Positions 50,621-64,000 of a DNA stretch of 64,000 nucleotides are shown here, one piece after another; positions within the stretch are counted from its first letter, which is position 1, and the number at the start of each line of letters is the position of its first letter. The notes below the pieces were generated by a model. It worked only from the letters and a program-made list of their open reading frames with translations. It did not search any database and was not told the DNA's origin. Location of the stretch: contig NZ_JACLZJ010000007.1 of assembly GCF_014253075.1 (NCBI RefSeq), positions 62,001 through 126,000 on the forward strand, written 5' to 3'. The stretch is from Ochrobactrum sp. CM-21-5. GTDB lineage: Bacteria; Pseudomonadota; Alphaproteobacteria; Rhizobiales; Rhizobiaceae. The translations under genes and the position numbers were made by a program.

Positions 50621-50650
50621 GATCAAGCCGGATTAACGCCCGGCTTGATC
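50621..50650. terminator. Shared hairpin between aldo/keto reductase and aldehyde dehydrogenase genes
   Basis: GATCAAGCCGG (50621-50631), 8-nt loop, CCGGCTTGATC (50640-50650): an 11-bp perfect stem, 8 bp after the reductase stop and 80 bp beyond the dehydrogenase stop on the other strand. No strong T-run. Confidence 0.65.
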
Positions 50651-50729
50651 GTACAAAATGAAAGTTCATTGAAAGCGTGTTTTCTACGACCAGTGACGTT
50701 GGCGGCAGTCGCTCCAATTGAGCTTGCTT

Positions 50730-52178
50730 TTATATCTGTAAAAATGAAACAAACTTCGTGTTCTGATAGGCATCCAACGCGTCTGCACCACCTTCTGTCC
50801 CGTAACCGGAGTCATTGATGCCACCGAACGGCACTTCCGGTAACGCCAGACCATAATGGTTGATAGTGATCATTCCGCTGCGAACTGAAGAGGAGATTTT
50901 CGCAGCATTGGCCGATGAACCGGTAAAGGCATAAGCCGCAAGCCCATAATTTAACCGATTGGCCTCACCCAACGCTTCATCCAGTGTATCAAATCTGTTC
51001 AGCAGCGCCACAGGACCAAATGGTTCCTCGTTCATGATCGCTGCATCGCGCGGTATATCGGCCAAGACAGTCGGTTCAAAGAAATTGCCCCGGTTGCCGA
51101 TACGCTCGCCACCTGTAATCAAAGCAGCTTTATGCTCTTTCGCATCCTGCACCAAACGCTCCATTGCGTTGACCCGTCTCGCATTGACCAATGGCCCCAT
51201 CGTCGTTTCAGCATCGAGACCATTCCCGACCTTCAACGATTTGGCATATGTTGCAATCCCCTCGACCACCTGATCGTAAACAGAAGTTTCAACAAGGAAG
51301 CGGGTCGGTGCAATGCAAATCTGTCCTGCATTCCGAAACTTGGAACCAGCGGCGACCTGGATCGCCCGTTCGATATCGGCATCCGCCATGATGATAACCG
51401 GTGCGTGCCCGCCAAGCTCCATAGTGACGCGCTTCATGTGCAGACCACTAAGTGCTGCCAGTTGCTTGCCCACCTGAGTGGAACCGGTGAAAGATACCTT
51501 TTTGATAACGGGATGAGGTATAAGATAGGACGAGATTTCAGCCGGATCACCGTAAACCAGATTGATGACGCCATTCGGCACGCCGGCCTCTGCGAAGGCG
51601 CGCACCAGTTCAGCTGGAGCAGCAGGCGTATCTTCCGCACCTTTCAGAATAATCGAACAACCGGCGGCCAAAGCTGCGGAAATCTTACGGACCGACTGAT
51701 TGATTGGAAAATTCCACGGCGTAAAAGCTGCAACAGGGCCGACGGGTTCCTTGACCTCTGCTTGCATGACGTGCGCCAGCCGCGGTGGAACAATCCGGCC
51801 ATAGCTGCGGCGCGCTTCCTCCGCAAACCAGTCGATCAGGTCGCAGGCAGCGGCTGCTTCGGTACGTGCTTCGGCAAGTGGCTTACCCTGCTCCATTGTC
51901 AGCAAATGCGCAACCGTTTCGCCCCGTCGGCGGAAAATATCGGCAGCACGACGCAAGACTTTATAACGGTCGAAAGCAGAAACCCTGCTCCATATCTCAA
52001 AGCCCCGATCCGCAGCGGCCAGTGCTTCATCAAGATCTGTCGTCGTGGCTTTCGCAATATGGCCGATAACCTCATCGGTCGCCGGATTTAAAATCTCGAT
52101 CGTTTCGCCATCCGAAGCACCACGCCAGGTTCCATCAATGAACAGCTGTATGTTTGAATACTCTACCTGAGTTCCCAT
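50730..52178 (-). CDS. NAD(P)-dependent aldehyde dehydrogenase (succinate-semialdehyde dehydrogenase-like)
   Basis: A 482-residue ALDH superfamily enzyme oxidising an aldehyde to the acid. Active-site residues are visible: Asn156 (PWNFP), Glu254 (MELGGHAP) and nucleophile Cys288 (NAGQICIAPTRF). The overall sequence is closest to the GabD-like group by eye, but the substrate is not fixed by the motifs. GGAGACG precedes the ATG. It lies 15 bp downstream of the CoA-transferase gene and so at the end of the transporter operon, where it would oxidise an aldehyde intermediate of the imported compound. Confidence 0.9.
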   Translation of the reverse strand: MGTQVEYSNIQLFIDGTWRGASDGETIEILNPATDEVIGHIAKATTTDLDEALAAADRGFEIWSRVSAFDRYKVLRRAADIFRRRGETVAHLLTMEQGKPLAEARTEAAAACDLIDWFAEEARRSYGRIVPPRLAHVMQAEVKEPVGPVAAFTPWNFPINQSVRKISAALAAGCSIILKGAEDTPAAPAELVRAFAEAGVPNGVINLVYGDPAEISSYLIPHPVIKKVSFTGSTQVGKQLAALSGLHMKRVTMELGGHAPVIIMADADIERAIQVAAGSKFRNAGQICIAPTRFLVETSVYDQVVEGIATYAKSLKVGNGLDAETTMGPLVNARRVNAMERLVQDAKEHKAALITGGERIGNRGNFFEPTVLADIPRDAAIMNEEPFGPVALLNRFDTLDEALGEANRLNYGLAAYAFTGSSANAAKISSSVRSGMITINHYGLALPEVPFGGINDSGYGTEGGADALDAYQNTKFVSFLQI

Positions 52179-52193
52179 AAACGTCTCCTCTTC

Positions 52194-53456
52194 TCAAACC
52201 GCTGCCTGGTATTGATGAATGACCCCAGCCTCGATCAACTGGGCCAGCTTGTCCTTGTCCAGCTTGAGCACATTTTCCAGAATGGAGACGCTATCCTCTC
52301 CCAACATGGGCGGCGCCTTGTAAGATGCCTGTTGCTGGGCCTCCAACCCTTGAGCGGGGCGCACCAGCGAAATGGCCCCCAGATGTGGGCTCTCCAGTGT
52401 CTGCACGACCTGCCGCGCCTTTACGTTCGGGCTTTCAAAGGCCTCCGGCACTGTCTTAACCTGCCCGGCAGGAACCCCCACCTTCAGGCAGGCAGCCATC
52501 CAATATTGCCGGGTATTGGTCAAGAAGCGTTCCACCATTTGCGGGATTAGTTCGGATCGATTTAACGCACGATCGCTTGCAGTCTTGAAACGCTCATCGG
52601 TCACCAGTTCCGGCAGATCAATAACTTTCTCGCAAAGGATCGCAAACTGGCGGTCATTGCCCACCGCGAGCGCAAAGGCGCCGTCCGAGCACTCGAAAAT
52701 TTGGTAAGGTACAACTGTCGGATGCGCATTGCCGAAGCGCGTCGGCACGTGGCCACCGTTCAGATGAGCGCTTCCGACATTGATCAATGTGTTGAGCGCA
52801 CATTCATAGAGCGAAATATCAACGTACTGACCGACACCCGTAGTCCTACGTTGATAAAGTGCGGCAAGAACGGATTGGGTGGCGACCATACCCGCAACAA
52901 TATCCGTCATGGCAACACCGATGCGCATCGGCTCACCATCTGTCTGTCCGGTGATGGACATCAGACCGCTCTCTGCCTGCACGACAAAATCGTAACCAGG
53001 ACGCAGAGCTTCCGGCCCCGTCTGACCATAACCGGAAATCGAACAATAAATGATGCCCGGGTTGAGAGCCTTCAGGGTTTCATAATCGACCTTCAGGCGC
53101 TCAACGGTGCCTGCGCGGAAATTTTCCACGACCACATCGGCCTGTTTGGCCAGTTCATGAATAATCTTCAGCCCTTCCGGCGACTTGATATCCAGAGCCA
53201 GGCTTTTCTTGCCCCGGTTTGCACAGAGGAAGTAAGTACTGGCGCCCTTGTAGTTGGGGATCGACCAGGCGCGTGTATCGTCGCCGCCCTGAATGTTCTC
53301 GATTTTCCAAACCTCGGCGCCCATATCTGCGAGGCTCATTGTGGCCCAGGGACCAGCGAGAACCCGAGAGAGATCCAGAACCTTTATTCCGGCCAGCGGC
53401 AAGGTTGCATTGCTTTTGGTCAGGCTGGGATCGTTTATGTTATTCATCATTTCCAA
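52194..53456 (-). CDS. CaiB/BaiF (class III) CoA-transferase
   Basis: A 420-residue family III CoA-transferase that moves CoA between carboxylic acids, using an aspartyl intermediate; Asp156 in [12 protein letters not shown] is the expected nucleophile. Conserved parts are [23 protein letters not shown] and [18 protein letters not shown]. The start is TTG at 53456 with AAGGA 7 nt before it (ATGs at 53450 and 53447 are alternatives). It follows the dppF-like ATPase gene by 52 bp. It probably activates an imported or derived acid to its CoA ester for the 3-hydroxyacyl-CoA dehydrogenase of the same island. Confidence 0.9.
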
Positions 53457-53508
53457 GATTGCATCCTTCTTGATCGGTCCTGCCGATTAGCAACACCAAA
53501 ACTCAAAA

Positions 53509-54540
53509 TTATTGAGCCGCACGCCATTCCTGCGGGAAGTGACACGCAACCTCGTGCCCTCCTCCATGACTTTGCAGTTCGGGCCTGACTTCGGCGCAAA
53601 CCGCCTGTGCTCTGAAGCAGCGGGTGCGGAACGAGCAGCCTGATGGCGGGTTAATTGGGCTTGGAACATCGCCCTTCAGCAAAATCTGCTGACGCTTGCG
53701 TTCGATAACTGGATCGGCCAGCGGCACAGCCGACATCAAAGCCTGCGTGTAAGGATGCAACGGGCGTCCGTAGAGCTTCCCCTTCGGGGCTTTCTCGACA
53801 ATGCGACCCAGATACATCACCGCCACCGTGTGCGAGATATGGCGAACAACCGAAAGGTCATGCGCGATAAACACATACGACGTCCCGAACTGAGCCTGAA
53901 TATCCTGAAGGAGATTCAAAATTCCCGCCTGAACAGATACGTCAAGTGCGGAGACCGGCTCATCGAGCACCATGACCTGCGGATTGAGAGCCAATGCACG
54001 CGCAATCACGACACGCTGACGCTGGCCACCTGAAAGCTCATGTGGATAGCGTTTGCCGTGCTCAGGATTAAGCCGCACCAGTTGCAGCATTTCCTTCACA
54101 CGTTCTTTCCGCTGTGCCGGCATGAGATCACCAATGCGCAGCGGTTCGGCGACACTGTCCTCGATGCGCATGCGCGGGTGAAGCGATGCAAACGGGTCCT
54201 GAAACACGAACTGGAGATGTTTGCGCGCCGCACGCATCTCCCGGGCATTGAGTTTTGTAACGTCGTTGCCGCGAAAAAGAACTTCGCCCCCCGTTGGCTC
54301 TATAAGCCTTAGAATGCAGCGCCCAAGCGTAGATTTTCCGCAGCCGGATTCACCAACCAACCCGAGAGTCTCTCCCTTGGCAAGATCAAATGAAATGTCG
54401 TCGACGGCTTTGACCTGCGCGATATCGCGCTGAATAATTATGCCGCCTTTCACCGGAAAGCTTTTTCTGAGATTGCGAACGGAAAGGGCGGTTTCTGCTT
54501 GCGATTGGGACGGCGCAATCGTCGTGAAGGTTTCACTCAT
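53509..54540 (-). CDS. Peptide-type ABC transporter ATP-binding protein (OppF/DppF-like)
   Basis: A 343-residue ATPase of an Opp/Dpp-class importer. Walker [13 protein letters not shown], signature [15 protein letters not shown], Walker [13 protein letters not shown], and the C-terminal oligopeptide-transporter extension with a cysteine-rich [14 protein letters not shown] segment (an iron-sulfur-like cysteine cluster is common there). It overlaps the preceding ATPase gene by 4 nt. The two ATPases together energise the two permeases of the operon. Confidence 0.93.
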
Positions 54541-55571
54541 AATTCGCCTCCTTCAAAAGTTTCCGCCTCGATCTTGCGTGCAAAAGGCGGCAAGCTATCG
54601 GCAAAATGGCATGCCGATTTGTGTTTTCCGAATCGCTGATAGGATGGAACCGTTTCGCGGCAGACGTCCTGCGCATACAGGCAACGCGGATGAAAGGCGC
54701 ACCCTTGGGGAAAGGCGCCAAGCACCGGCGGAGCGCCGTCTATGGAAAACAGCTTTCCGTCGCTGTCGCCGAGCGTGGGGATCGAGGCGATCAGACCCCG
54801 CGTGTAGGGATGTCGTGGATTTTCAAACAGCTCATATATGCCCGCTTCTTCAACCACCTCACCAGCATAGACTACGGCAACCCGGTCGGCGTGGCCAGCC
54901 AGAACGCCAAGATCATGCGTGATGAGGATTAATCCGAGGCCCAGTTTCTCTTGCAAATCGCGCAGAACCGCCATGATCTGCGCCTGTACCGTCACGTCCA
55001 GCGCAGTGGTCGGCTCATCGGCGATCAAAAGATCCGGATTGTTAGCGACGGCCATCGCAATCATCACACGTTGGCGCATACCACCGGAGAATTCATGCGG
55101 ATATTGTTTAACACGCTGATCGGGTTGCGGAATTGAGACAAGTTCCAGCAATTCGATGGCACGAGCCAGCGCCTGTTTATGGTTCAAACCTTTCTGATGA
55201 AGCTGCAAAGCCTCAATGATCTGATCTCCGACCTTCATTACCGGATTAAGAGAAGACAGAGGATCTTGAAAGATCATGGCGATCTTCGAACCACGCAAGT
55301 TCTGCATTTCACGGCGCGATTTGCCCACCAGTTCCTCTCCCTGAAAGGTAACGGAACCTGTCACTTTCGCGTTAGGCGGTGTCAGGCCGATTGCAGCAAG
55401 CATGCCAATCGATTTTCCCGATCCGGACTCACCGACAATCCCCAACACCTCCCCGCGCTCAAGTTCCAGACTGATACCGCGCACAGCGTCAAGGACTCCA
55501 CCATCACGACCGAAACCCACCCGCAAATTCGCAATTCGAAATAGACTGGCGCTCTTATTCAGGCTTGTCAT
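54537..55571 (-). CDS. Peptide-type ABC transporter ATP-binding protein (OppD/DppD-like)
   Basis: A 344-residue ATPase. Walker [14 protein letters not shown], signature [14 protein letters not shown], Walker [13 protein letters not shown], followed by the C-terminal Opp/Dpp domain ([16 protein letters not shown]). It lies 12 bp downstream of the second permease gene and overlaps the OppF-like gene by 4 nt. Confidence 0.93.
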
Positions 55572-55583
55572 TTTATTCCCCGA

Positions 55584-56429
55584 TCATTTGGAGCGCGGAT
55601 CGAAATAGTCGCGAAGACCATCGCCAATGAAATTGAAGCCCAGCACAATGGTCAGAATTGCGAGTCCAGGCCCCAAGGCGATCCACCAATTGTAGAAATA
55701 GACCGCGCCTTCAGCGATCATCGAGCCCCATTCAGGTGTCGGAGGCGTTGCTCCAAGGCCGATGAAGCTAAGCGATGCGGCTAGCAGAATAACCTGGCCG
55801 AGATCCATCGTGGCGCTGATGAGTATCGGGGTCCAGCAGAGCGGTAGAATATGCTTGAACAGGATGCGCGTGCTGCTCGCGCCTGCCGCTATCGCTGCCT
55901 CGACATGTTCGCGTTCGCGTACTTCCAATACTTGTGCCCGCATCAGCCGGGCATAAACCGGCCACCAAACGATCACCATGGCAATGGCGGCATTCTCAAG
56001 ACCAGGCCCCAGCGAAGCAGCAACGGCCATGGCGAGCAGCATCGGTGGAAATGACAGCGTGATATCCACCAGCCGCATGATAACTGCACCAATCAAGCCG
56101 CCTTTATAGCCTGCGACCGCACCAGCCAGAGCGCCAATAACAACTGCACTGACCACAACGACCAGCGCAATTGGCAAGGAGTGCTTGGCGCCGTAAAGCG
56201 TGCGAGTCAGCACGTCACGACCAAGGGCATCCGTACCCAGCCAATAAGACCAGCTCGGCGTCTGCAATCGGCGACCAACCATATCCAGCGGATCGTAAGA
56301 CGTCATGTAAGGCGCGAAAATAGTGGCAACGAGCCAGAAACCGACAACGATAATGCCAATAAACAACGGCAGAGTGAACCAGCTTGGTATTTTGAACTGA
56401 CGCGTTAAGATATTTACTGAAGCTATCAT
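55584..56429 (-). CDS. Peptide-type ABC transporter permease (DppC-like)
   Basis: A 281-residue inner-membrane permease with an N-terminal anchor helix (residues ~18-38), the DppC-typical LGTDALGRDVLTRTLYGAK periplasmic segment, and the cytoplasmic EAA loop EAAIAAGASSTRILFKHILP that docks to the ATPases. AAGGGGAAG precedes the ATG. It lies 11 bp after the DppB-like gene. Confidence 0.93.
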   Translation of the reverse strand: MIASVNILTRQFKIPSWFTLPLFIGIIVVGFWLVATIFAPYMTSYDPLDMVGRRLQTPSWSYWLGTDALGRDVLTRTLYGAKHSLPIALVVVVSAVVIGALAGAVAGYKGGLIGAVIMRLVDITLSFPPMLLAMAVAASLGPGLENAAIAMVIVWWPVYARLMRAQVLEVREREHVEAAIAAGASSTRILFKHILPLCWTPILISATMDLGQVILLAASLSFIGLGATPPTPEWGSMIAEGAVYFYNWWIALGPGLAILTIVLGFNFIGDGLRDYFDPRSK

Positions 56430-56440
56430 CGACTTCCCCT

Positions 56441-57454
56441 TCAGCCCAACCGCACGCGTGGATTGGCGAGAACGTATGCGACATCGGTAAGCAGATTGGT
56501 CACGAGGAACATAATTCCGCCAACGATCGTCACCCCAATTATTGCAGGGAAATCAAGCGAACGAGCTGCCTCCACGGCATAGGATCCCAGGCCAGGCCAG
56601 GCAAAAATGGTTTCTGTCAACACAGCACCGGTGATCAGATATGCGAAGGAATAACTGATCACGGTGAGAACCGGCACGAGAATGTTCCGCAATGCGTGAC
56701 GGAAAACCACACGCAATTCCCCTGCCCCTTTCGCGCGTGCAGTGAGGATGAACTCCCGCCCGATCACATCCAGCATATTAGCCCGGACAAGGCGGGAAAT
56801 GGTTCCGGCAACAGTCCAGCCAAGCACGACGGATGGAAGTACCAGATGGGCAAGAGCATCCTTAAATGCTGCAAAATCACCGGCGAGCAGACTGTCGATC
56901 GTCATGAACCCGGTGACAGCGGCAGGCGGCGTCATGCGCGGGGCAAGACGCCCAGGGCCCGGCAGAAGTTCAAAATGCACCGAGAAAATGAACAGGGCAG
57001 CGAGCCCCAGCCAGAAAACCGGCAACGACGAACCGAGCAAAGCGAAAAGTCGCGCCATATGGTCGATAATACTGTCGCGATAATAGGCGGCTAGAATGCC
57101 GAGCATGATTCCAACAATCGAACCCAGAACCATCCCCGCCAGCACCAGTTCCATGGTGGCCGGTAAACGCGCCATGAGATCAGTACTGACCGGACGTTTG
57201 GTAACAAAGGACGTGCCCATGTCGCCAGTCACGAGATTTTTCAAATAGATGAAGTAGCGCTCAGGCAAGCTGCGATCCAGCCCCCACTTTGCTTTCGCAG
57301 CCGCTACGACCTCTGGATTATTCATCTGTTGCTCTGCCACTATTGAGGTGAGCGGGTCACCTTTCGTTATGGTGGTCAGACCGAACGCTATGGTAACGAT
57401 ACCCAGAATTAGAAACGGCATCGCAATCAGACGCCTGAAAAGATAGTTTGACAT
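56441..57454 (-). CDS. Peptide-type ABC transporter permease (DppB-like)
   Basis: A 337-residue permease, first gene of the minus-strand transporter operon. It starts MSNYLFRRLIAMPFLILGIVT, has about six membrane segments and the EAA-type loop FILTARAKGAGELRVVFRHA. The ATG at 57454 (with GGGAA upstream) begins the canonical Dpp/OppB N-terminus; the frame continues to 57517 but that would intrude on the promoter. No binding protein gene is in this operon; it is instead at 59863-61482. Confidence 0.92.
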   Translation of the reverse strand: MSNYLFRRLIAMPFLILGIVTIAFGLTTITKGDPLTSIVAEQQMNNPEVVAAAKAKWGLDRSLPERYFIYLKNLVTGDMGTSFVTKRPVSTDLMARLPATMELVLAGMVLGSIVGIMLGILAAYYRDSIIDHMARLFALLGSSLPVFWLGLAALFIFSVHFELLPGPGRLAPRMTPPAAVTGFMTIDSLLAGDFAAFKDALAHLVLPSVVLGWTVAGTISRLVRANMLDVIGREFILTARAKGAGELRVVFRHALRNILVPVLTVISYSFAYLITGAVLTETIFAWPGLGSYAVEAARSLDFPAIIGVTIVGGIMFLVTNLLTDVAYVLANPRVRLG

Positions 57455-57510
57455 GCACAGTTCCCATTCTGGAAATTTGGCGCGGCTCTTGGGTGGCTTT
57501 GCGCTTAGTA

Positions 57511-57542
57511 TTGACAACCAAAATGGGAGCCGTCAATATAAA
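57511..57542 (+). promoter_or_regulatory. Probable iclR promoter, overlapping the opposing transporter promoter
   Basis: TTGACA (57511-57516) and an AATATAAA stretch (57535-57542) form a plus-strand promoter with an 18-20-nt spacer. On the opposite strand TTGACG (57531-57536) and AATACT (57507-57512) form a leftward promoter over the same bases. Promoters of such face-to-face design are usually mutually exclusive. Pattern-based only. Confidence 0.45.
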
Positions 57543-57559
57543 TGAAATTAAATTTCATT
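57541..57559. promoter_or_regulatory. Candidate IclR operator (19-bp palindrome)
   Basis: AATGAAATT (57541-57549), central A, AATTTCATT (57551-57559): a perfect dyad. Its core TGAAATTAAATTTCA resembles the E. coli IclR box TGGAAATNATTTCCA. It sits 53 bp upstream of the iclR-family start, at the plus-strand -10 and just upstream of the leftward -35, placed to control both directions. Confidence 0.6.
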
Positions 57560-57612
57560 TTTGTATTTTTCAATCTGTGCCGGGAACACCCGCCTGAAGA
57601 CCAGGAGAAAAC

Positions 57613-58446
57613 GTGAAGAAAAGAGCGAAGCCGAGTCCACAGGACGCCGAAAAAGATTCCGCTCAGGTTTCGAGCGCTCTCGTGCGTGGGCTGGAGATAT
57701 TGCGTAGCTTCACGCCGCAGGATGTTTCACTCGGCAACCAGGAGCTGATCGACCGCACGGGATTGCCGAAGGCCACGATTTCACGCTTGACCTATACCTT
57801 GGTCAATCTCGGCTACCTTAATTACGACGAGAACCTGGGACGTTACAGCATTGGTCCCGCAACGATCGCTCTTGGCTATTCAGGCCTGAGTTCCAATGCG
57901 GTTGTCTATATGGCAATGCCTCTCATGCGCAAACTTGCGGAAAAGACCGGCGTCGCTGTGGCGATGGGTCTACGCGAACAGCATGAGATGGTTTACATCG
58001 CCAATGCACGCTCTGAAAACCCTGTTTCCCTGCGCCTGAACGTTGGTTCACGCCTCCCGATCTGGAAGACTGCGATGGGGCTCGCGTATTATGTAGGCAT
58101 GGAAGAAACACAGCGAGAGATTCTTCTTGAGCAGATGCTGGCTACGGAACCAGAGCATTCGGAGCGAATCCTGCGATTGACAAATCATGCGCTGGAAGAT
58201 TTCGCGCGGGATGGCTTCATTGCCTCCTGCGGCGACTGGTACAGCTACATCAATGCGGTTGGCATTCCATTCCGTCCGACCGACGGAACACAGCTTGTCG
58301 CCATCACCTGTGGTGGCATTACCGATATTGCGCCGCGTGGCATTTGTTACGCTGAAATTGGCCCCGACCTCAAGAAACTTGTTATCGAATTGCAGGAAAG
58401 ACTCCTAGGCAATTCAAGCAAGGCCTCTCCAAACCCTCAACCGTAG
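57613..58446 (+). CDS. IclR-family transcriptional regulator
   Basis: A 277-residue regulator with an N-terminal winged HTH (residues ~20-80, VRGLEILRSF, GLPKATISRLTYTLVNLGYL) and a C-terminal IclR effector-binding domain (PLMRKLAEKTGVAVAMGLREQHEMVYIANA, then YINAVGIPFRP). GTG start with CAGGAGAAAA before it. It is divergent from the ABC transporter operon and 44 bp upstream of the lipoyl-hydrolase gene, so it most likely controls the island in response to the imported compound or its acid. Confidence 0.93.
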   Translation: MKKRAKPSPQDAEKDSAQVSSALVRGLEILRSFTPQDVSLGNQELIDRTGLPKATISRLTYTLVNLGYLNYDENLGRYSIGPATIALGYSGLSSNAVVYMAMPLMRKLAEKTGVAVAMGLREQHEMVYIANARSENPVSLRLNVGSRLPIWKTAMGLAYYVGMEETQREILLEQMLATEPEHSERILRLTNHALEDFARDGFIASCGDWYSYINAVGIPFRPTDGTQLVAITCGGITDIAPRGICYAEIGPDLKKLVIELQERLLGNSSKASPNPQP

Positions 58447-58490
58447 AAATCCTACACGGCTGCGAAAACCACATCGTTGCAGGACATCCC

Positions 58491-59780
58491 ATGGCCACTG
58501 AAATTCTATATCCAAAAGTTAGTCTGGAAACCAATTCCGGAACCATTTCACGCTGGCACGTGAAAGATGGTGATGAGGTTACACAAGGCCAACTTCTCTT
58601 TGAAGTAGATAATGACAAAACCGTGGTGGAGGTCGACGCTCCCCACGACGGCACAATCACAATATTGAAACCTTCCACTGACCACGAGATCGATGTCGGT
58701 CAAAGCGTAGCCAGTTTGTTCGCCAAGGGCGAAGCTGTCACCACCGGCGCGCCCGTAGCGGTTGCGGTTGCCCCCAGAAGCGCCATAACAGCATCAACTT
58801 CACCAACGACCCCAGGCACAGACCGTAACGATAGAACGATTGCAACACCGCTTGCCAAGCGCATGGCCAGCGATGCCGGTATCGATCTTGCACTGGTCAG
58901 CGGTAGCGGCCCGAGTGGGCGCATTCAGAAGAAAGATATTGTTGCCGCAATAGAAACCGCCGGGATGTTTTCTCAGCGCAAACCTTTTTCAGCGCAGCCA
59001 CAACTGGGAAACAATACCCTCCTCAATACTGTCTGGCTGCGAAAGGGCGAAGCCACGCCACTTGTCCTGCTGCATGGCTTTGCTTCGGATCACAACAACT
59101 GGCGTGGCCTTTTCGCTGGCAGCCAATGGCAACAGCCATTGCTAGCAGTTGATCTGCCCTCACATGGTGAATCACCGCTGACTGACACCGAAAACCTTGA
59201 TGCGATCGCGGCCATGGTGGAAGACACGCTCAAGGCGCTGGATATTCAACGCGCGATTCTTGTAGGTCACTCTTTTGGTGCAGCCGTCAGCACACGCCTC
59301 GCCAGCCGAGGCAACCTTGACATCCGCGCATTGGGACTATTTTCACCCGCGGGACTTGGTCCCGAAATCAATGTGGGCTTCGTACAGAATTTCGTTCGCG
59401 CAAAGTCAAAAGAAAGTGTCACGCCTTGGTTGCATGAACTGGTTCATGACAAGGCGACGATCTCGGAAACTTTCATCAATGCGGTAGTTCAGCAGCGCCA
59501 GAACCAGAGTTTGAGTGACGCCATGACGTCGTTTTCCGAGCATTTCTTTGCCGACGGCACACAGACGGTTTCAATCGTGGACGATCTCGCATCCCTCGAA
59601 ATCCCCGTTCGTGTCATCTACGGAAAACAGGATAAGATCTTGCCATTCCGCTACACACGCAACCTGCCTGACAACGTCGCGCTTCACGCCTTTGAAGCCT
59701 GCGGGCACATGCCACACCTGGAAAAGCGAAGCCTGTCCTTACGCATTTTGGAAGAACTTTCCAGTTCTACACGTGTGTAA
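58491..59780 (+). CDS. AcoC-type E2: lipoyl domain, subunit-binding domain and alpha/beta-hydrolase
   Basis: A 429-residue protein with three parts. The biotinyl-lipoyl domain has the attachment site DNDKTVVEV, Lys43. The peripheral subunit-binding domain (~114-152, ATPLAKRMASDAGIDLALVSGSGPSGRI) is the docking site for E1/E3. The third part is an alpha/beta-hydrolase domain (~185-425) with LVLLHGFASD, nucleophile Ser261 in GHSFG, an aspartate in YGKQDKILP and the C-terminal histidine in CGHMPHLEK. The usual CoA-dependent acyltransferase domain (HHxxxDG) is absent. AcoC of acetoin dehydrogenase has the same swap. It probably transfers or releases the acyl group formed by the fused E1 at 61517-63694. 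No E3 gene is in the window. Confidence 0.9.
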   Translation: MATEILYPKVSLETNSGTISRWHVKDGDEVTQGQLLFEVDNDKTVVEVDAPHDGTITILKPSTDHEIDVGQSVASLFAKGEAVTTGAPVAVAVAPRSAITASTSPTTPGTDRNDRTIATPLAKRMASDAGIDLALVSGSGPSGRIQKKDIVAAIETAGMFSQRKPFSAQPQLGNNTLLNTVWLRKGEATPLVLLHGFASDHNNWRGLFAGSQWQQPLLAVDLPSHGESPLTDTENLDAIAAMVEDTLKALDIQRAILVGHSFGAAVSTRLASRGNLDIRALGLFSPAGLGPEINVGFVQNFVRAKSKESVTPWLHELVHDKATISETFINAVVQQRQNQSLSDAMTSFSEHFFADGTQTVSIVDDLASLEIPVRVIYGKQDKILPFRYTRNLPDNVALHAFEACGHMPHLEKRSLSLRILEELSSSTRV

Positions 59781-59784
59781 AGAA

Positions 59785-59813
59785 AAAGCCGCCGATGAGG
59801 CATCGACGGCTTT
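59785..59813 (-). terminator. Terminator of the binding-protein operon
   Basis: AAAGCCG + CGATG stem (59785-59797) with CATCG + CGGCTTT (59801-59813), one mismatch, 3-nt loop. On the minus strand it is followed by TTTTTCTTT; on the plus strand by no T-run. It lies beyond the other hairpin for leftward transcripts. Confidence 0.8.
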
Positions 59814-59831
59814 CTGTCAGATAGAAACTGA

Positions 59832-59867
59832 AAGGGCCGAAGATTTCTCTCCGGCCCTTATTTTATT
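59832..59867 (+). terminator. Terminator of the iclR/E2 transcript
   Basis: AAGGGCCG (59832-59839) with CGGCCCTT (59852-59859), followed on the plus strand by ATTTTATTT, which overlaps the stop codon of the opposing binding-protein gene. Confidence 0.8.
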
Positions 59868-61482
59868 TGGAGATCGAGATTTCGGCCAACGGCAGATTGC
59901 AACAAGCTGAATAACGGACACCATTCACCCTGTTATTATACGCGAGAATAACGTCCGGGCTGAGCATCGGAATGATAACATTAGCGGCAGACATCACTTC
60001 ACCAGCTTTAAACCAGACCTTGTCCGCCTCATCTAATGGCGATTTGAGCGCGTCAGCCATGATCTGCGGAATCTCATTGATCACAAATGAGGGGTCACGC
60101 GCCTCACCGGCACGCTTGGCCCAGAGGCTGTCCTTTGCCAGTCCAAATGCATCGACATATTGCGATGTCCCATAGAAGTCCGGTGCGTAGTAAACGGCGG
60201 TCATCGGGATGCCGTCACCATTAACCTTTTCACGCCAGGTCGCGAACGAAACCGGCTGCAATTCGACATTCACATTGACCTTCGAGAGATCCTGCTGGAT
60301 CTTTTGCATCATCTGAGTGAAATCGACACCGTAAACGTTCAAGTTCGGATAGGTTGCTTCCAGCTTAAAGCCATCGGGATGACCAGCCTTGGCGAGAAGC
60401 TCCTTGGCTTTCTGCGGATTATATTCCGGGATCTTATGATCCGACCCACCCGGGAAGCCGATCGGTATCGCTGCCGCGATCAGCTGCCCCTTGTCGCCGA
60501 GCATGAAATCAAGCAAAGATTCACGGTCGATTGCCGCTGAGATTGCTTCGCGGACATCAGCTGTCAATGGAACTTCATTCGACTTCGCCCCCGGTGAAAG
60601 GGCCAGATAGATGAAGTTATAAGAATGGATGGAGTCGACCTTGACATCCTTATTGCGAATGGTTTTGGCCGTTTCCGGATCAATCTGCATCGCAATGTCA
60701 GCCGAACCGTTTTCCAGCATCTGCGCCTGAGCAACGGCATCCTTCACCTGACGGATGACAACTTCGTCAACCTTCGGTGCCTCGCGCCAATAGTTCACGT
60801 TGCGCTTCAGGCGCAGTTCGGAGTTTGGTTCATAGGCGCCAAGGACAAACGGGCCGCTGCCAGCTGAGTTGGCCAGAAACCATGCTTCTGCATTGTCTTT
60901 TTGAGCTGCATCTGCACCGTTAAGCGCGTTTGCATCTGCCGCCGCGACATCACTGTTGACGATACCGAAGTAGGGCGAGGCTACAACGTTATAAAATTCG
61001 GAATTCGACGCCTGGGTCTTGACGACCACAGTTTCTTCATCCGGCGTTTCGATGGAAGCAATCGTGTCTGCCAGAAACGATGGGCTACCCCTGACGTTTT
61101 TCAGACGCTCCCACGACCATTTTACGTCTTTTGCTTCCACCTTGGATCCATCCGAGAAAACAGCTTTCGGATTGATCTTGAACGTGAATTCGGTCTGGTC
61201 ACCGTTCGCCGTATAGCTCTTAGCGAGTACTGCGACGATTTGATTGTCCTTGTCCAACGAAAGAAGGCCTTCATAGACGGCGGAATCATAAATCTGGCAG
61301 GTGTCGCAGAAGGTGCGATGAGGATCGAGCGAATTGATGTCCATGTTTCGGGCGATGACCAGAGAGTTAGTACTCTGGGCCGATGCCACTGCCGGCAAAG
61401 CCGTGAGCAGCGTTGCCGCCATCATCACGTTTCGCAAAGCCTTGAAGGACATGTCGGCGGCTCCCGCTTTTCTCTGTTGCAT
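59863..61482 (-). CDS. ABC transporter substrate-binding protein, family 5 (peptide type)
   Basis: A 539-residue exported binding protein. The N-terminus has a signal peptide (MMAATLLTALPAVASA, ending about residue 36) after a short basic region. The family 5 features SLDPHRTFCDTCQIYDSAVYEGL and the EFTFKINPKAVFSDGSKVEAKDVKWSWERL block are present. The CDTC pair near the start of the mature protein is unusual and could form a disulfide. AAGGGAG lies upstream of the ATG at 61482. It is the only binding protein in the island and the natural partner of the DppBCDF-like genes, though encoded on a separate transcript behind the E1 gene. Confidence 0.93.
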   Translation of the reverse strand: MQQRKAGAADMSFKALRNVMMAATLLTALPAVASAQSTNSLVIARNMDINSLDPHRTFCDTCQIYDSAVYEGLLSLDKDNQIVAVLAKSYTANGDQTEFTFKINPKAVFSDGSKVEAKDVKWSWERLKNVRGSPSFLADTIASIETPDEETVVVKTQASNSEFYNVVASPYFGIVNSDVAAADANALNGADAAQKDNAEAWFLANSAGSGPFVLGAYEPNSELRLKRNVNYWREAPKVDEVVIRQVKDAVAQAQMLENGSADIAMQIDPETAKTIRNKDVKVDSIHSYNFIYLALSPGAKSNEVPLTADVREAISAAIDRESLLDFMLGDKGQLIAAAIPIGFPGGSDHKIPEYNPQKAKELLAKAGHPDGFKLEATYPNLNVYGVDFTQMMQKIQQDLSKVNVNVELQPVSFATWREKVNGDGIPMTAVYYAPDFYGTSQYVDAFGLAKDSLWAKRAGEARDPSFVINEIPQIMADALKSPLDEADKVWFKAGEVMSAANVIIPMLSPDVILAYNNRVNGVRYSACCNLPLAEISISK

Positions 61483-61516
61483 TTTGTTCTCCCTTTTATC
61501 CAGCTTGGTAAGTCAT

Positions 61517-63694
61517 TCATGCTGAAAGCATGATTTTTTCCAGTGCCACCCGTATCTTTTCAGCCGAACCTAGTGCCGCCTTGTTCAGAACCAATGAAAC
61601 GACTGGCGACGCTATACTGCCCGTTACATGCAGGATCTCGTGGTCCAGTTCGTTGAAGTAGCGCTTCTGGATTTCTGCTGCCCAATGACGGCCAAGCGAC
61701 AGACCGCTCGCAACCTGCTCAGCGATCACAATCCGGTTGGTTTTTGCGATGGAGGCGCCAATCAGTTCCCAGTCGATGCCGAACATATCAAGACTGCGCA
61801 TATCGATAATTTCGGCGTCGATGCCGGATTCCTCAACCGCCTTTATGGCTGCGGGAACCATGACGGAGGTGGACAACACAGTGCATGCCGATCCCGGGCG
61901 CAGGACTTTAGCCTTGCCAAACGGAATGCAATAGTCGCGGTCATTTTTGGGGACCAGGCTTTCCCGCTGGTAGAATTCAACATGCTCGATCACGGCAACA
62001 GGATCATTCGATTTCAATGCGCTGTTCATCAAGCCGATATAATCGAACGCATTGGTTGGCGATACGACGCGCCAGCCCGGGAACATTGCAAACAGCGCCG
62101 AAGGGTCGCCGGAGTGCTGGGAACCATAACCTGTATGTGGCGAGACGCGCACACGTAGAACGATGGGCACCGGAAAACCGTCACCGAACATGTGGCGCAC
62201 TTTAGAGATTCCGTTGGCGATCTGGTCGGCTGCGACGAAGCAAAAGTCACCAAACATGATTTCAACAACCGGGCGCAAGCCCCGCAAAGCAGCCCCCAGT
62301 GCCACGCCAGTAAACCCATTTTCAGCAATCGGCATGGCGAGGACCCGTCCTGGAAACAGTTCGAGGGCGCTTTTAGTGAACCCACTAACCCCACCGGCGA
62401 ACCGATGAACATCCTCGCCCATCACAATGATGGTCGGGTCTTTTTCCATCATGCGCCCAAGAACATCCGAAGCTGCAGCGGCGAAGCGCATTTTCTGCAG
62501 TTGGTCTGGTTGATAGTCTTCAATCTCACGGAATTCAGCGTCGGAGAACTCGCTGCCGTCACCAAGAATACCGTCATCAACGCTATCGGTGGAAGGCCAG
62601 AGGGCGTCGGGAATGCGCAGGACATTGCTGCCCGGTGCCGTTTCGGTCAATCGCTCTCCCGCAGCCTGAACGGCAGCGGTTACGCGATCATCAATCTTCG
62701 CAAAGTCGGCTTCGTCCGCAATTCCAAGTTCCTTCAGGCGGCGTTCAGCCTGCGCAATTGGATCACGACGCTTCCACTCATCTTCTTCCTCGCGGGTACG
62801 ATAGCCAAAATCACTGCCTGATTTACTGCCGCTCTGGTGAAGATAACGATAGCACTGCGCCTCGATGACAACGGGGCCGCCCTCTTCCTCGATAATGCGG
62901 CAGGCATCGCTCATGGCCTGATGAACGGCGAGAATGTCCATGCCGTCGCATTCAATGCCAGCAAAGCCAAGCATCGGGCCACGGGAGGCAATGCGGGTTT
63001 CACGCGTTGCATCCTGAATGTGCGTTGATACGGCATAGAGATTGTTCTCGACATAAAAGATGACCGGCAAGCGATAGAGCGCGGCGATATTCATCGCTTC
63101 GTAGGTCGCGCCTTGCAAAGACGCGCCATCACCGAAAAATGCGACTGATATGCCTTTTCGGTTCAACAGCTTGTCCGCCAGTGCATAACCAGCCGCGTGT
63201 GGAATGTTGCCACCGACAATTGCGCTCGTTCCGGCAATACCGGAAGCTGCATCGCGCATATGCATCGAACCACCACGCCCGCCGCAGTATCCCGTGTTCA
63301 GTCCCATGATTTCAGCCATCAAACGATAGACGGCATCATTCATTCCGTGAGTGAAATCAGACTGAAGAACATCGAATTGCGAAGGCGTCTGCGCATTGAT
63401 CAGCTTGGTCAAAACCTGATGGTGAGCGCGATGCGTACCATTGATCTGATCGTCGGTTTTCAGCACCGACATGGCGCCGACAGCCGCAGCCTCCTGTCCT
63501 ATACTTGCGTGAGCGGGGCCATGAACCAGTCCAGCTTTTTCAAAGTCGAGTATCTTCTCCTCGAACCGGCGGATCAGCTTCATCTGGCTATACCATTTCA
63601 GCAGATCGGCTGCTTTCGCATTGCGCCAGTCTTCGTCAGTTACATTGAGCCGATACCAAGGCGCCGATGGTTTCAGATCGATTTTTTCTGCCAC
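61517..63694 (-). CDS. Fused alpha-beta E1 component of a 2-oxo acid / acetoin-type dehydrogenase (TPP-dependent)
   Basis: A 725-residue fusion. The N-terminal alpha half (1-~390) has HRAHHQVL and the TPP motif GDGASLQGATYEAMNIAALYRL...ENN (188-218). The C-terminal beta half (~400-725) has MGEDVHRFAGGVSGFTKSALELFPGRV, ENGFTGVALGAALRGLRPVVEIMF and the C-terminal transketolase domain (FGKAKVLRPGSACTVLSTSVMV). The active site is formed across the two halves. It decarboxylates a 2-oxo acid or cleaves an acetoin-like ketol and loads the acyl onto a lipoyl arm. The start is GTG at 63694 with AAGGA upstream, 14 nt after the preceding gene, which makes an operon. Confidence 0.93.
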   Translation of the reverse strand: MAEKIDLKPSAPWYRLNVTDEDWRNAKAADLLKWYSQMKLIRRFEEKILDFEKAGLVHGPAHASIGQEAAAVGAMSVLKTDDQINGTHRAHHQVLTKLINAQTPSQFDVLQSDFTHGMNDAVYRLMAEIMGLNTGYCGGRGGSMHMRDAASGIAGTSAIVGGNIPHAAGYALADKLLNRKGISVAFFGDGASLQGATYEAMNIAALYRLPVIFYVENNLYAVSTHIQDATRETRIASRGPMLGFAGIECDGMDILAVHQAMSDACRIIEEEGGPVVIEAQCYRYLHQSGSKSGSDFGYRTREEEDEWKRRDPIAQAERRLKELGIADEADFAKIDDRVTAAVQAAGERLTETAPGSNVLRIPDALWPSTDSVDDGILGDGSEFSDAEFREIEDYQPDQLQKMRFAAAASDVLGRMMEKDPTIIVMGEDVHRFAGGVSGFTKSALELFPGRVLAMPIAENGFTGVALGAALRGLRPVVEIMFGDFCFVAADQIANGISKVRHMFGDGFPVPIVLRVRVSPHTGYGSQHSGDPSALFAMFPGWRVVSPTNAFDYIGLMNSALKSNDPVAVIEHVEFYQRESLVPKNDRDYCIPFGKAKVLRPGSACTVLSTSVMVPAAIKAVEESGIDAEIIDMRSLDMFGIDWELIGASIAKTNRIVIAEQVASGLSLGRHWAAEIQKRYFNELDHEILHVTGSIASPVVSLVLNKAALGSAEKIRVALEKIMLSA

Positions 63695-63708
63695 GATGAC
63701 GGTTTCCT

Positions 63709-64000
63709 TTACTTATAGTCTGCCAATGGCAGCTTCAGCTCGGCCCGGCGACGCAACCAAAGACTGGCACGGTATCGCGGATCGAGAGTTCTTTCATGAA
63801 TGTGATCGAGAATACGGACAATCACACCGGTACCGATACGATCGCCCCATTCAAGCGGACCGAACGGATAGCCGAGCCCCAGCCGCACGGCAGCATCGAG
63901 ATCTTCGGCAGATGCGATGTTTTGCTGAACCATGTCCGACGCAATATTCACAATCATTGCCAGAACGCGCTGGCAAACGGTTCCGCAGCTATCGCTAATC
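63709..64000 (-). CDS. 3-hydroxyacyl-CoA dehydrogenase (PaaH-type), C-terminal end only
   Basis: The frame is open to the right edge; about 97 C-terminal residues are visible. They match the second helical dimerisation domain of PaaH-like 3-hydroxyacyl-CoA dehydrogenases: VCQRVLAMIVNIASDMVQQ, ASAEDLDAAVRLGLGYPFGPLEWGDRIG and YRASLWLRRRAEL. The NAD-binding part lies outside the window. It stops 14 nt before the fused E1 start. It would oxidise a 3-hydroxyacyl-CoA intermediate of the island's pathway. Confidence 0.85.
   Translation of the reverse strand, partial: ISDSCGTVCQRVLAMIVNIASDMVQQNIASAEDLDAAVRLGLGYPFGPLEWGDRIGTGVIVRILDHIHERTLDPRYRASLWLRRRAELKLPLADYK

What the first reader, a model, noticed from the sequence alone, without database searches (positions are those of the whole stretch)
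50621..64000. IclR-centred import-and-degrade island with an acetoin-dehydrogenase-like complex
Seen: a DppBCDF-type importer, class III CoA-transferase and aldehyde dehydrogenase run left from one IclR gene. An AcoC-like E2 runs right. Facing it is an operon of 3-hydroxyacyl-CoA dehydrogenase, fused E1 and the importer's binding protein. Known: acetoin/2-oxo acid complexes, CaiB transferases and PaaH dehydrogenases each act on short acyl chains, and Dpp-class importers also carry non-peptide substrates. Inferred: this is one pathway that takes up a compound, cleaves it with TPP/lipoate chemistry to an aldehyde plus an acyl group, and handles the products as CoA esters. I know of no named pathway with this combination.
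Basis: partly seen in the sequence, partly recalled or inferred. Interest (0 to 1): 0.75.

Follow-up and report, generated by a model that had tools for sequence, protein, structure and literature searches.

The report
Undescribed regulon, probably for amino alcohols
A shared but apparently undescribed bacterial gene set under one operator looks built to import a hydroxylated amine, remove its nitrogen to give an acetoin-like ketone, and break that ketone with an acetoin-dehydrogenase-like complex.

Summary
All genes named are present: DppBCDF importer, CoA-transferase, aldehyde dehydrogenase, IclR, AcoC-type E2, binding protein, one-chain E1. The conserved part runs about 4 kb past the window end.

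Two things were missed. (1) 30 of 41 loci carry a class III aminotransferase related to FumI (fumonisin aminopentol aminotransferase); 25 of 41 carry a class IV one of the (R)-amine transaminase group. (2) The palindrome TGRAATTWWATTYCA lies in the IclR/Dpp and ECH/ACAD promoters and in a kinase/aldolase promoter on another contig, beside this genome's FumI-like gene. These are its only exact both-strand sites in 4.28 Mb.

Best model: import, transamination of a vicinal amino alcohol to an alpha-hydroxyketone (acetoin homologue), E1/E2 cleavage to acyl-CoA plus aldehyde, oxidation, CoA transfer, beta-oxidation. Related loci without E1 often carry a split transketolase. One pathway: about 0.85. 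This chemistry: about 0.5. Substrate unknown.

The parts
50730..52178 (-). Semialdehyde-type aldehyde dehydrogenase
   Evidence: Pfam Aldedh 523 bits; PDB best 9zh8 and 5x5t (alpha-ketoglutaric semialdehyde dehydrogenase), both 634 bits
52194..53456 (-). Class III CoA-transferase (CaiB family)
   Evidence: Pfam CoA_transf_3 418 bits; best NCBIfam succinate-glutarate CoA-transferase 378 bits, below its cut-off of 750; PDB 10uh 804 bits, then 9br7 succinate-hydroxymethylglutarate CoA-transferase 352 bits
53509..54540 (-). DppF-like ATPase of the importer
   Evidence: NF008453 422 bits, cut-off 408
54537..55571 (-). DppD-like ATPase
55584..56429 (-). DppC-like permease
56441..57517 (-). DppB-like permease; an in-frame ATG at 57454 (MSNYLFRR...) may be the true start
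57543..57557 (.). Palindromic putative operator TGAAATTAAATTTCA between DppB and IclR
   Evidence: binding not tested
57613..58446 (+). IclR-family regulator
   Evidence: Pfam HTH_IclR and IclR_C
58491..59780 (+). AcoC-type E2: lipoyl domain, E3-binding domain, alpha/beta hydrolase
   Evidence: lipoyl Lys and Ser/Asp/His of the hydrolase kept in 31 of 31 E2s aligned
59863..61482 (-). Family 5 solute-binding protein of the importer
   Evidence: Pfam SBP_bac_5 259 bits; in 36 of 41 E1 loci
61517..63694 (-). One-chain E1 (alpha and beta parts fused, 725 aa), TPP-dependent
   Evidence: GTG start agrees with orthologues
63709..64000 (-). C-terminal end of a 506-aa 3-hydroxyacyl-CoA dehydrogenase; gene continues outside the window (L002:709-2229), followed there by enoyl-CoA hydratase, operator (L002:3067-3081), acyl-CoA dehydrogenase and shikimate-dehydrogenase-like gene

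Best explanation
One IclR-controlled catabolic pathway for a hydroxylated amine, most likely a vicinal amino alcohol, with or without an N-acyl group. Proposed steps, all inferred from family, linkage and regulation: (1) DppBCDF with its family 5 binding protein imports the amine. (2) A FumI-like class III aminotransferase, joined in many genomes by a class IV aminotransferase of the (R)-amine transaminase group, turns R'-CH(NH2)-CH(OH)-R into the alpha-hydroxyketone R'-CO-CH(OH)-R, a homologue of acetoin when R' is methyl. (3) The one-chain E1 attacks the ketone with TPP, releases the aldehyde R-CHO and passes the acyl group over the lipoyl arm of the AcoC-type E2 to CoA. (4) The semialdehyde-type dehydrogenase oxidises R-CHO, the CaiB enzyme gives the acid a CoA, and ACAD, ECH, HCDH and a thiolase shorten it. 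(5) A 3-oxo-tetronate-kinase-like enzyme and a class II aldolase, under the same palindrome in the window genome, probably handle more hydroxylated ketols, giving DHAP plus an aldehyde. Shown: gene content, linkage, the shared palindrome, aminotransferase kinship. Not shown: any substrate, any reaction, or IclR binding.
For: Linkage census with paralogue control. All 7 of 297 family genomes with this E1 clade have the FumI-like gene, against 11 of 290 others; within 15 kb of E1 in 5 of the 7. FumI kinship: 453 bits for the Agrobacterium T29 copy, next solved protein 170; 390 bits for the window genome's own copy, its only hit at E<=1e-60. FumI makes a 3-hydroxy-2-ketone (PMC2933618, passages), chemically a long acetoin. 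E2 passes the acetoin E2 model. The class IV enzyme of Shinella HZN7 differs from solved 6xu3 in 10 of 324 aligned positions; the next hits include (R)-selective transaminases. Shared palindrome joins the island promoters with the kinase/aldolase promoter beside the FumI-like gene on contig C23. In 11 loci with the FumI-like gene but no such E1, 7 carry a transketolase N half and 6 a C half; transketolase too acts on alpha-hydroxyketones (established knowledge).
Against: No reaction tested. E1 scores best with pyruvate dehydrogenase E1 models, all below their cut-offs, so homology does not fix its substrate. No E3 gene was seen in the island. 14 of 41 loci show no E2 and 11 of 41 no FumI-like gene within the fetched stretch, and in the window genome the FumI-like gene is on another contig. 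The window genome has no class IV aminotransferase at E<=1e-60. G080 holds both E1/E2 and a split transketolase, so the swap is a tendency. A Dpp importer seems ill suited to long-chain sphingoid-like amines. The palindrome also occurs by chance elsewhere: all 5 genomes without this E1 that were scanned have sites at <=1 mismatch, and G294 has one exact both-strand site without island homologues nearby.
Confidence: 0.5

Rival explanations
1. The substrate is a polyhydroxylated amine (amino-polyol or amino-sugar relative). Transamination gives a ketose, kinase and class II aldolase split it to DHAP and an aldehyde, and E1/E2 oxidises a 2-oxo acid formed later instead of cleaving the ketol.
For: Kinase in 21 and aldolase in 21 of 41 loci, kinase in 10 of 11 FumI-like loci without E1; aldolase closest to fuculose-/ribulose-1-phosphate aldolases; E1 nearest to pyruvate dehydrogenase models.
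Against: Does not explain the hydrolase-type acetoin E2 or the CoA-transferase plus beta-oxidation set; no enzyme making a 2-oxo acid was recognised.
Confidence: 0.2
2. A pathway for an omega-amino acid or short dicarboxylate: the class III enzyme deaminates the omega-amine, the semialdehyde is oxidised, activated by CaiB and beta-oxidised; E1/E2 serves a side product.
For: CaiB best resembles succinyl-CoA-dependent glutarate-type transferases, ALDH resembles semialdehyde dehydrogenases, and a 3-oxoadipyl-CoA thiolase is in 3 of 41 loci and in Agrobacterium T29.
Against: The class III enzyme is nearest to FumI, far above GABA-type enzymes (453 against about 121 bits); kinase, aldolase and the dedicated E1/E2 are unexplained.
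Confidence: 0.14
3. Ordinary acetoin or 2,3-butanediol catabolism with unrelated neighbours.
For: E2 passes the acetoin E2 model.
Against: Importer, CoA-transferase, ACAD and aminotransferases stay linked in many genomes and share the palindrome; E1 matches no acetoin-specific model.
Confidence: 0.06
4. Two or more unrelated pathways that share a neighbourhood.
For: E1 promoter sites within 2 mismatches are seen in only 12 of 41 loci; some loci lack several of the genes.
Against: Co-occurrence across many genomes, in several gene orders, with shared palindromes.
Confidence: 0.08

Closest known systems
Acetoin dehydrogenase complex with AcoC-type E2
   Same: TPP E1 plus an E2 made of lipoyl, E3-binding and alpha/beta hydrolase domains
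   Different: E1 alpha and beta fused in one chain; no E3 in the island; IclR control; tied to an importer, CoA-transferase, beta-oxidation and aminotransferases
Fumonisin degradation by Sphingopyxis MTA144 (fum cluster, FumI)
   Same: Class III aminotransferase of the same family that makes a 3-hydroxy-2-ketone from a 2-amino-3-ol
   Different: The window genome's own copy is clearly diverged from FumI. Recalled, not tested: in the fum cluster the keto product is thought to meet an acetolactate-synthase-like TPP enzyme, and import uses a TonB receptor
Fold IV (R)-selective amine transaminases
   Same: Island AT4 of Shinella HZN7 is about 97% identical to solved class IV aminotransferase 6xu3 and related to enzymes called (R)-selective transaminases
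   Different: Here inside a conserved catabolic island; absent from the window genome at E<=1e-60
3-oxo-tetronate pathway (OtnK kinase, OtnC decarboxylase)
   Same: Kinase family and class II aldolase superfamily
   Different: Kinase 273.5 and 269.4 bits against a cut-off of 350; aldolase scores higher with fuculose-/ribulose-1-phosphate aldolases than with OtnC

Membership tests
Acetoin dehydrogenase complex | TPP-dependent E1 with alpha and beta parts | tested here: met
   E1_dh, Transket_pyr, Transketolase_C in one chain; TPP and active-site motifs kept (roles recalled)
Acetoin dehydrogenase complex | E2 of AcoC type | tested here: met
   NF011457 431.7 bits, cut-off 307; lipoyl Lys and hydrolase triad in 31 of 31
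Acetoin dehydrogenase complex | E3 (AcoL) gene in the cluster | tested here: not met
   None among the island genes listed; rest of the genome not searched for E3
Acetoin dehydrogenase complex | Cleaves acetoin | not testable with these tools
   needs enzyme assay
FumI-type aminotransferase | Sequence nearest to FumI, well apart from other class III enzymes | tested here: met
   453 against 170 bits for the next solved protein; window genome copy 390 bits, only hit at E<=1e-60
FumI-type aminotransferase | Deaminates a 2-amino-3-ol | not testable with these tools
   needs enzyme assay
Fold IV (R)-amine transaminase | Close sequence match to the group | tested here: met
   Shinella and Agrobacterium island copies; but no copy in the window genome at E<=1e-60
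3-oxo-tetronate pathway | Kinase over the OtnK cut-off and decarboxylase over the OtnC cut-off | tested here: not met
   269-274 bits of 350; 92 and 126 bits of 250
IclR regulon | One operator in front of both divergent island promoters and of linked genes elsewhere | tested here: met
IclR regulon | The IclR protein binds the palindrome | not testable with these tools
   needs gel shift

The most novel reading that the evidence does not exclude
Alphaproteobacteria share an undescribed 'transaminate, then cleave the ketol' strategy for vicinal amino alcohols: FumI-type and (R)-selective transaminases make acetoin homologues, which a dedicated one-chain E1 with hydrolase-type E2, or in sister loci a split transketolase, cleaves. 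This would be the native job of at least part of the fold IV (R)-amine transaminases used as biocatalysts.
Probability: 0.4. Interest if true: 0.72.

Novelty: new variant of a known kind. Interest (0 to 1): 0.52.

Why it matters
It would extend acetoin-dehydrogenase chemistry to amine-derived ketols, give a natural setting to a transaminase group known to me mainly from biocatalysis, and point to further FumI-like enzymes. The palindrome offers a way to list pathway genes scattered in a genome, as it did here for the kinase and aldolase on contig C23.

Tried and rejected
Rejected: plain acetoin catabolism (too many linked extra genes); a chance neighbourhood (paralogue control). Considered and left open: long-chain 2-amino-3-ols, amino-polyols, aminocyclitols, biotin-like compounds; the genes single out none.

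Led nowhere: literature on this gene combination (no paper; ten listed, seen as titles and abstract starts, none on it); on the solved structures (35 papers matched, 12 listed, unrelated by title); on (R)-amine transaminases in Shinella or their natural role (one paper each, seen as abstract start, not on it); on the fum cluster's TPP enzyme (five listed, none holds the term fumK). Most subscription journals are not held, so absence from print is not shown.

In one search a look for a site just upstream of E1 gave 7 mismatches in L003, L019 and L025 and 3 in L032, L042 and L048; one search read the E1-ACAD gap directly and found 3 mismatches in L003 and L019 as well (L025 was not repeated). 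The site at C1:666150 of the window genome, exact on one strand only, is read as chance. The first census (ORF-based) undercounts; (tblastn, identity thresholds that I chose per family, 40% coverage) replaces it. Counts are lower bounds because loci end 10 kb from E1. The simple ORF caller mis-calls genes in GC-rich genomes. Some genomes were fetched twice under different ids (for example L041 and L052), so the 49 clade E1 rows are not 49 genomes.

Full report
What is there. The window is G000:C26:62001-126000 of a 4.28 Mb genome in 28 contigs. The contig runs on for 12.4 kb: the 3-hydroxyacyl-CoA dehydrogenase and an enoyl-CoA hydratase, then in the other direction an acyl-CoA dehydrogenase, a shikimate-dehydrogenase-like gene (about 4 kb past the window end), a penicillin-acylase-like gene and a second Dpp system. 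The nearest named E1 relatives (89-90%) are Brucella tritici, B. pseudogrignonensis and B. rhizosphaerae, next to two unnamed Rhizobiales isolates, so the organism is probably an environmental Brucella of the Ochrobactrum group (inference).

E1 clade. Of 297 genomes of the family, 18 have a fused E1 at E<=1e-150: 7 at 63-100% identity, the window included, and 11 at 44-48% only; one of the seven (G188) also holds a 46% copy. A scan of genome contigs gave 41 loci at 61-90%, a few of them short or with partial E1; by record titles they are mostly Rhizobiaceae, Phyllobacteriaceae, Brucella and Rhodobacter relatives (placement recalled). Five more were read on plasmids or megaplasmids. In an alignment of 64 E1 rows, 49 of this clade, the commonest forms keep GDG, the glutamate of PI(A/S)EN and the histidine of QHS in clade and paralogues alike.

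Co-occurrence., all 41 loci, short ones included: SBP 36, IclR 31, DppB 30, DppC 30, ACAD 30, FumI-like AT3 30, CaiB 28, DppD 27, DppF 27, E2 27, class IV AT4 25, kinase 21, aldolase 21, ALDH 11, HCDH 11, ECH 11, shikimate-DH-like 5, PotD-type SBP 5, thiolase 3, split transketolase 0. Twelve loci of the 44-48% paralogues: SBP, IclR, DppB, DppC, DppF, ACAD, CaiB, E2, AT4 all 0; DppD 1, AT3 1, kinase 1, aldolase 1, ALDH 2, shikimate-DH-like 3, transketolase halves 2 each. Several paralogue loci do have a more distant lipoyl E2-like gene (31-42%), below the thresholds used. So this set belongs to this E1 clade. Five plasmid loci: SBP, IclR, DppBCDF, CaiB, E2, ACAD, AT4 and kinase 5 of 5, AT3 4 of 5.

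Aminotransferases. AT3 of Agrobacterium T29 scores 453 bits with 6hbs/6hbv and 170 with the next solved protein; 6HBS is FumI (PMC9858248, passages). The window genome's own AT3 is on contig C23 at 339513-340709, 6 kb from that contig's end, 59% identical to the T29 copy, with 6hbs as its only hit at E<=1e-60. It lies beside a kinase, a class II aldolase, a GntR gene, a DMFA2_C protein and a PotD-type importer 85-92% identical to the one near E1 in B. tritici. Whether C23 and C26 are adjacent is not known. All 7 genomes with this E1 clade have AT3, against 11 of 290 others (hypergeometric 8e-10, relatedness ignored); the gene is within 15 kb of E1 in 5 of 7. AT4 of Shinella HZN7 differs from 6xu3 in 10 of 324 positions by my count; the window genome has no AT4 at E<=1e-60. 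FumI's product is a 3-hydroxy-2-ketone (PMC2933618, passages): a longer acetoin. This is the main chemical reason for the model.

Operator. The two divergent promoters share 18 of 20 bases around a palindrome. For the 13-base core GAAATTWAATTTC the window has one site, an exact one (0.1 expected at <=1 mismatch, 1.85 at <=2, Markov sequence), and the continuing contig one with 1 mismatch, in the ECH/ACAD promoter. In the whole genome TGRAATTWWATTYCA is exact on both strands at three places only: the two island promoters and the kinase/aldolase promoter on C23. A fourth place is exact on one strand and a fifth has 1 mismatch; the reversed control pattern has none. Other genomes with this E1, places at <=1 mismatch: G271 2 of 3 in the island; G188 4 of 4 in the island region; G080 2 of 2, the second before its DppBCDF and E2 genes 25 kb from E1; G089 1 of 1, upstream of E1; G178 1 of 5; G106 0 of 1. 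Five genomes without this E1: 11 (G294), 3, 2, 2 and 1 places; one of G294's is exact on both strands, with no island homologue within about 8 kb. Over the loci (<=2 mismatches to the core): 34 of 41 E1-clade loci (47 sites in 842 kb), 1 of 12 paralogue loci (1 in 235 kb), 1 of 11 AT3 loci without E1 (1 in 215 kb); base composition was not matched. 27 of 31 loci with an IclR or DppB ORF have a site within 300 bp of its start; 12 of 41 have one near an E1, ECH, HCDH or ACAD start. Nine loci that I chose (L003, L004, L008, L009, L019, L028, L032, L033, L048) all have a 3-mismatch variant upstream of E1.

Swap of the TPP enzyme. Of 11 loci with AT3 in genomes without this E1, 7 hold SBP and DppBCDF, 10 the kinase, 6 the aldolase, 7 a transketolase N half, 6 a C half, 0 AT4 (domains). 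Transketolase and acetoin-type E1 both act on alpha-hydroxyketones (established knowledge), which speaks for a ketol intermediate. G080 holds both kinds, so this is a tendency. The importer comes in two forms: binding protein about 60-65% or about 51-55% identical to the window's; the second form is shared by some E1 loci and the AT3 loci without E1.

Downstream steps. CaiB is closest among functionally named solved proteins to human succinate-hydroxymethylglutarate CoA-transferase, ALDH to a semialdehyde dehydrogenase, and the Agrobacterium thiolase passes the 3-oxoadipyl-CoA thiolase model (708 bits, cut-off 597). This suggests that the arm left after cleavage is a short acid or dicarboxylate (inference). 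DMFA2_C, penicillin-acylase-like and amidase genes beside parts of the system suggest N-acyl or N-formyl forms of the amine (inference).

E2. The lipoyl lysine and the hydrolase serine, aspartate and histidine are kept in 31 of 31 E2s with over 90% coverage, the window included (30 GHS, 1 AHS; shorter E2 pieces were left out). The hydrolase domain is therefore probably catalytic (inference).

Literature. FumI papers were seen as passages only (PMC2933618, PMC5408185, PMC9858248). Searches for the combination gave no paper describing it within an open-licence library.

Noticed in passing
L002:5393-13131 (G000:C26:130393-138131): Penicillin-acylase-like gene and a second complete Dpp system follow the island; both partly seen also in Brucella cytisi L038, beside ACAD.
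   Followed up: partly
L038 (Brucella cytisi LMG 22713): Most island genes, E1 and SBP included, are broken into short ORFs, by sequencing error or decay; left as they are.
   Followed up: no
L074 (G188 C1): The 46% paralogous E1 sits with FumI-like and class IV aminotransferase genes, kinase, aldolase, split transketolase and ALDH: a second, independent joining of the same parts.
   Followed up: partly
L063, L065, L068, L071: Shikimate-dehydrogenase-like genes (40-46%) recur near the paralogous fused E1s too.
   Followed up: no
L051:9027-10706 and L059:15163-17427: DMFA2_C (N,N-dimethylformamidase beta-like) proteins lie near the FumI-like gene in two lineages.
   Followed up: no
L082:2348-9637 (G080): Two luciferase-like monooxygenases and a flavin reductase lie inside this genome's enlarged island, a possible C-N bond-opening step.
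   Followed up: no
L003:23201-24178: The Shinella island's class IV aminotransferase is about 97% identical to solved structure 6xu3; I recall 6xu3 as a Shinella enzyme, but no call shows its source.
   Followed up: partly
G000:C1:666150: One-strand exact match to the operator, upstream of a gene that looks like glucose-6-phosphate isomerase (recognised by eye); probably chance.
   Followed up: partly
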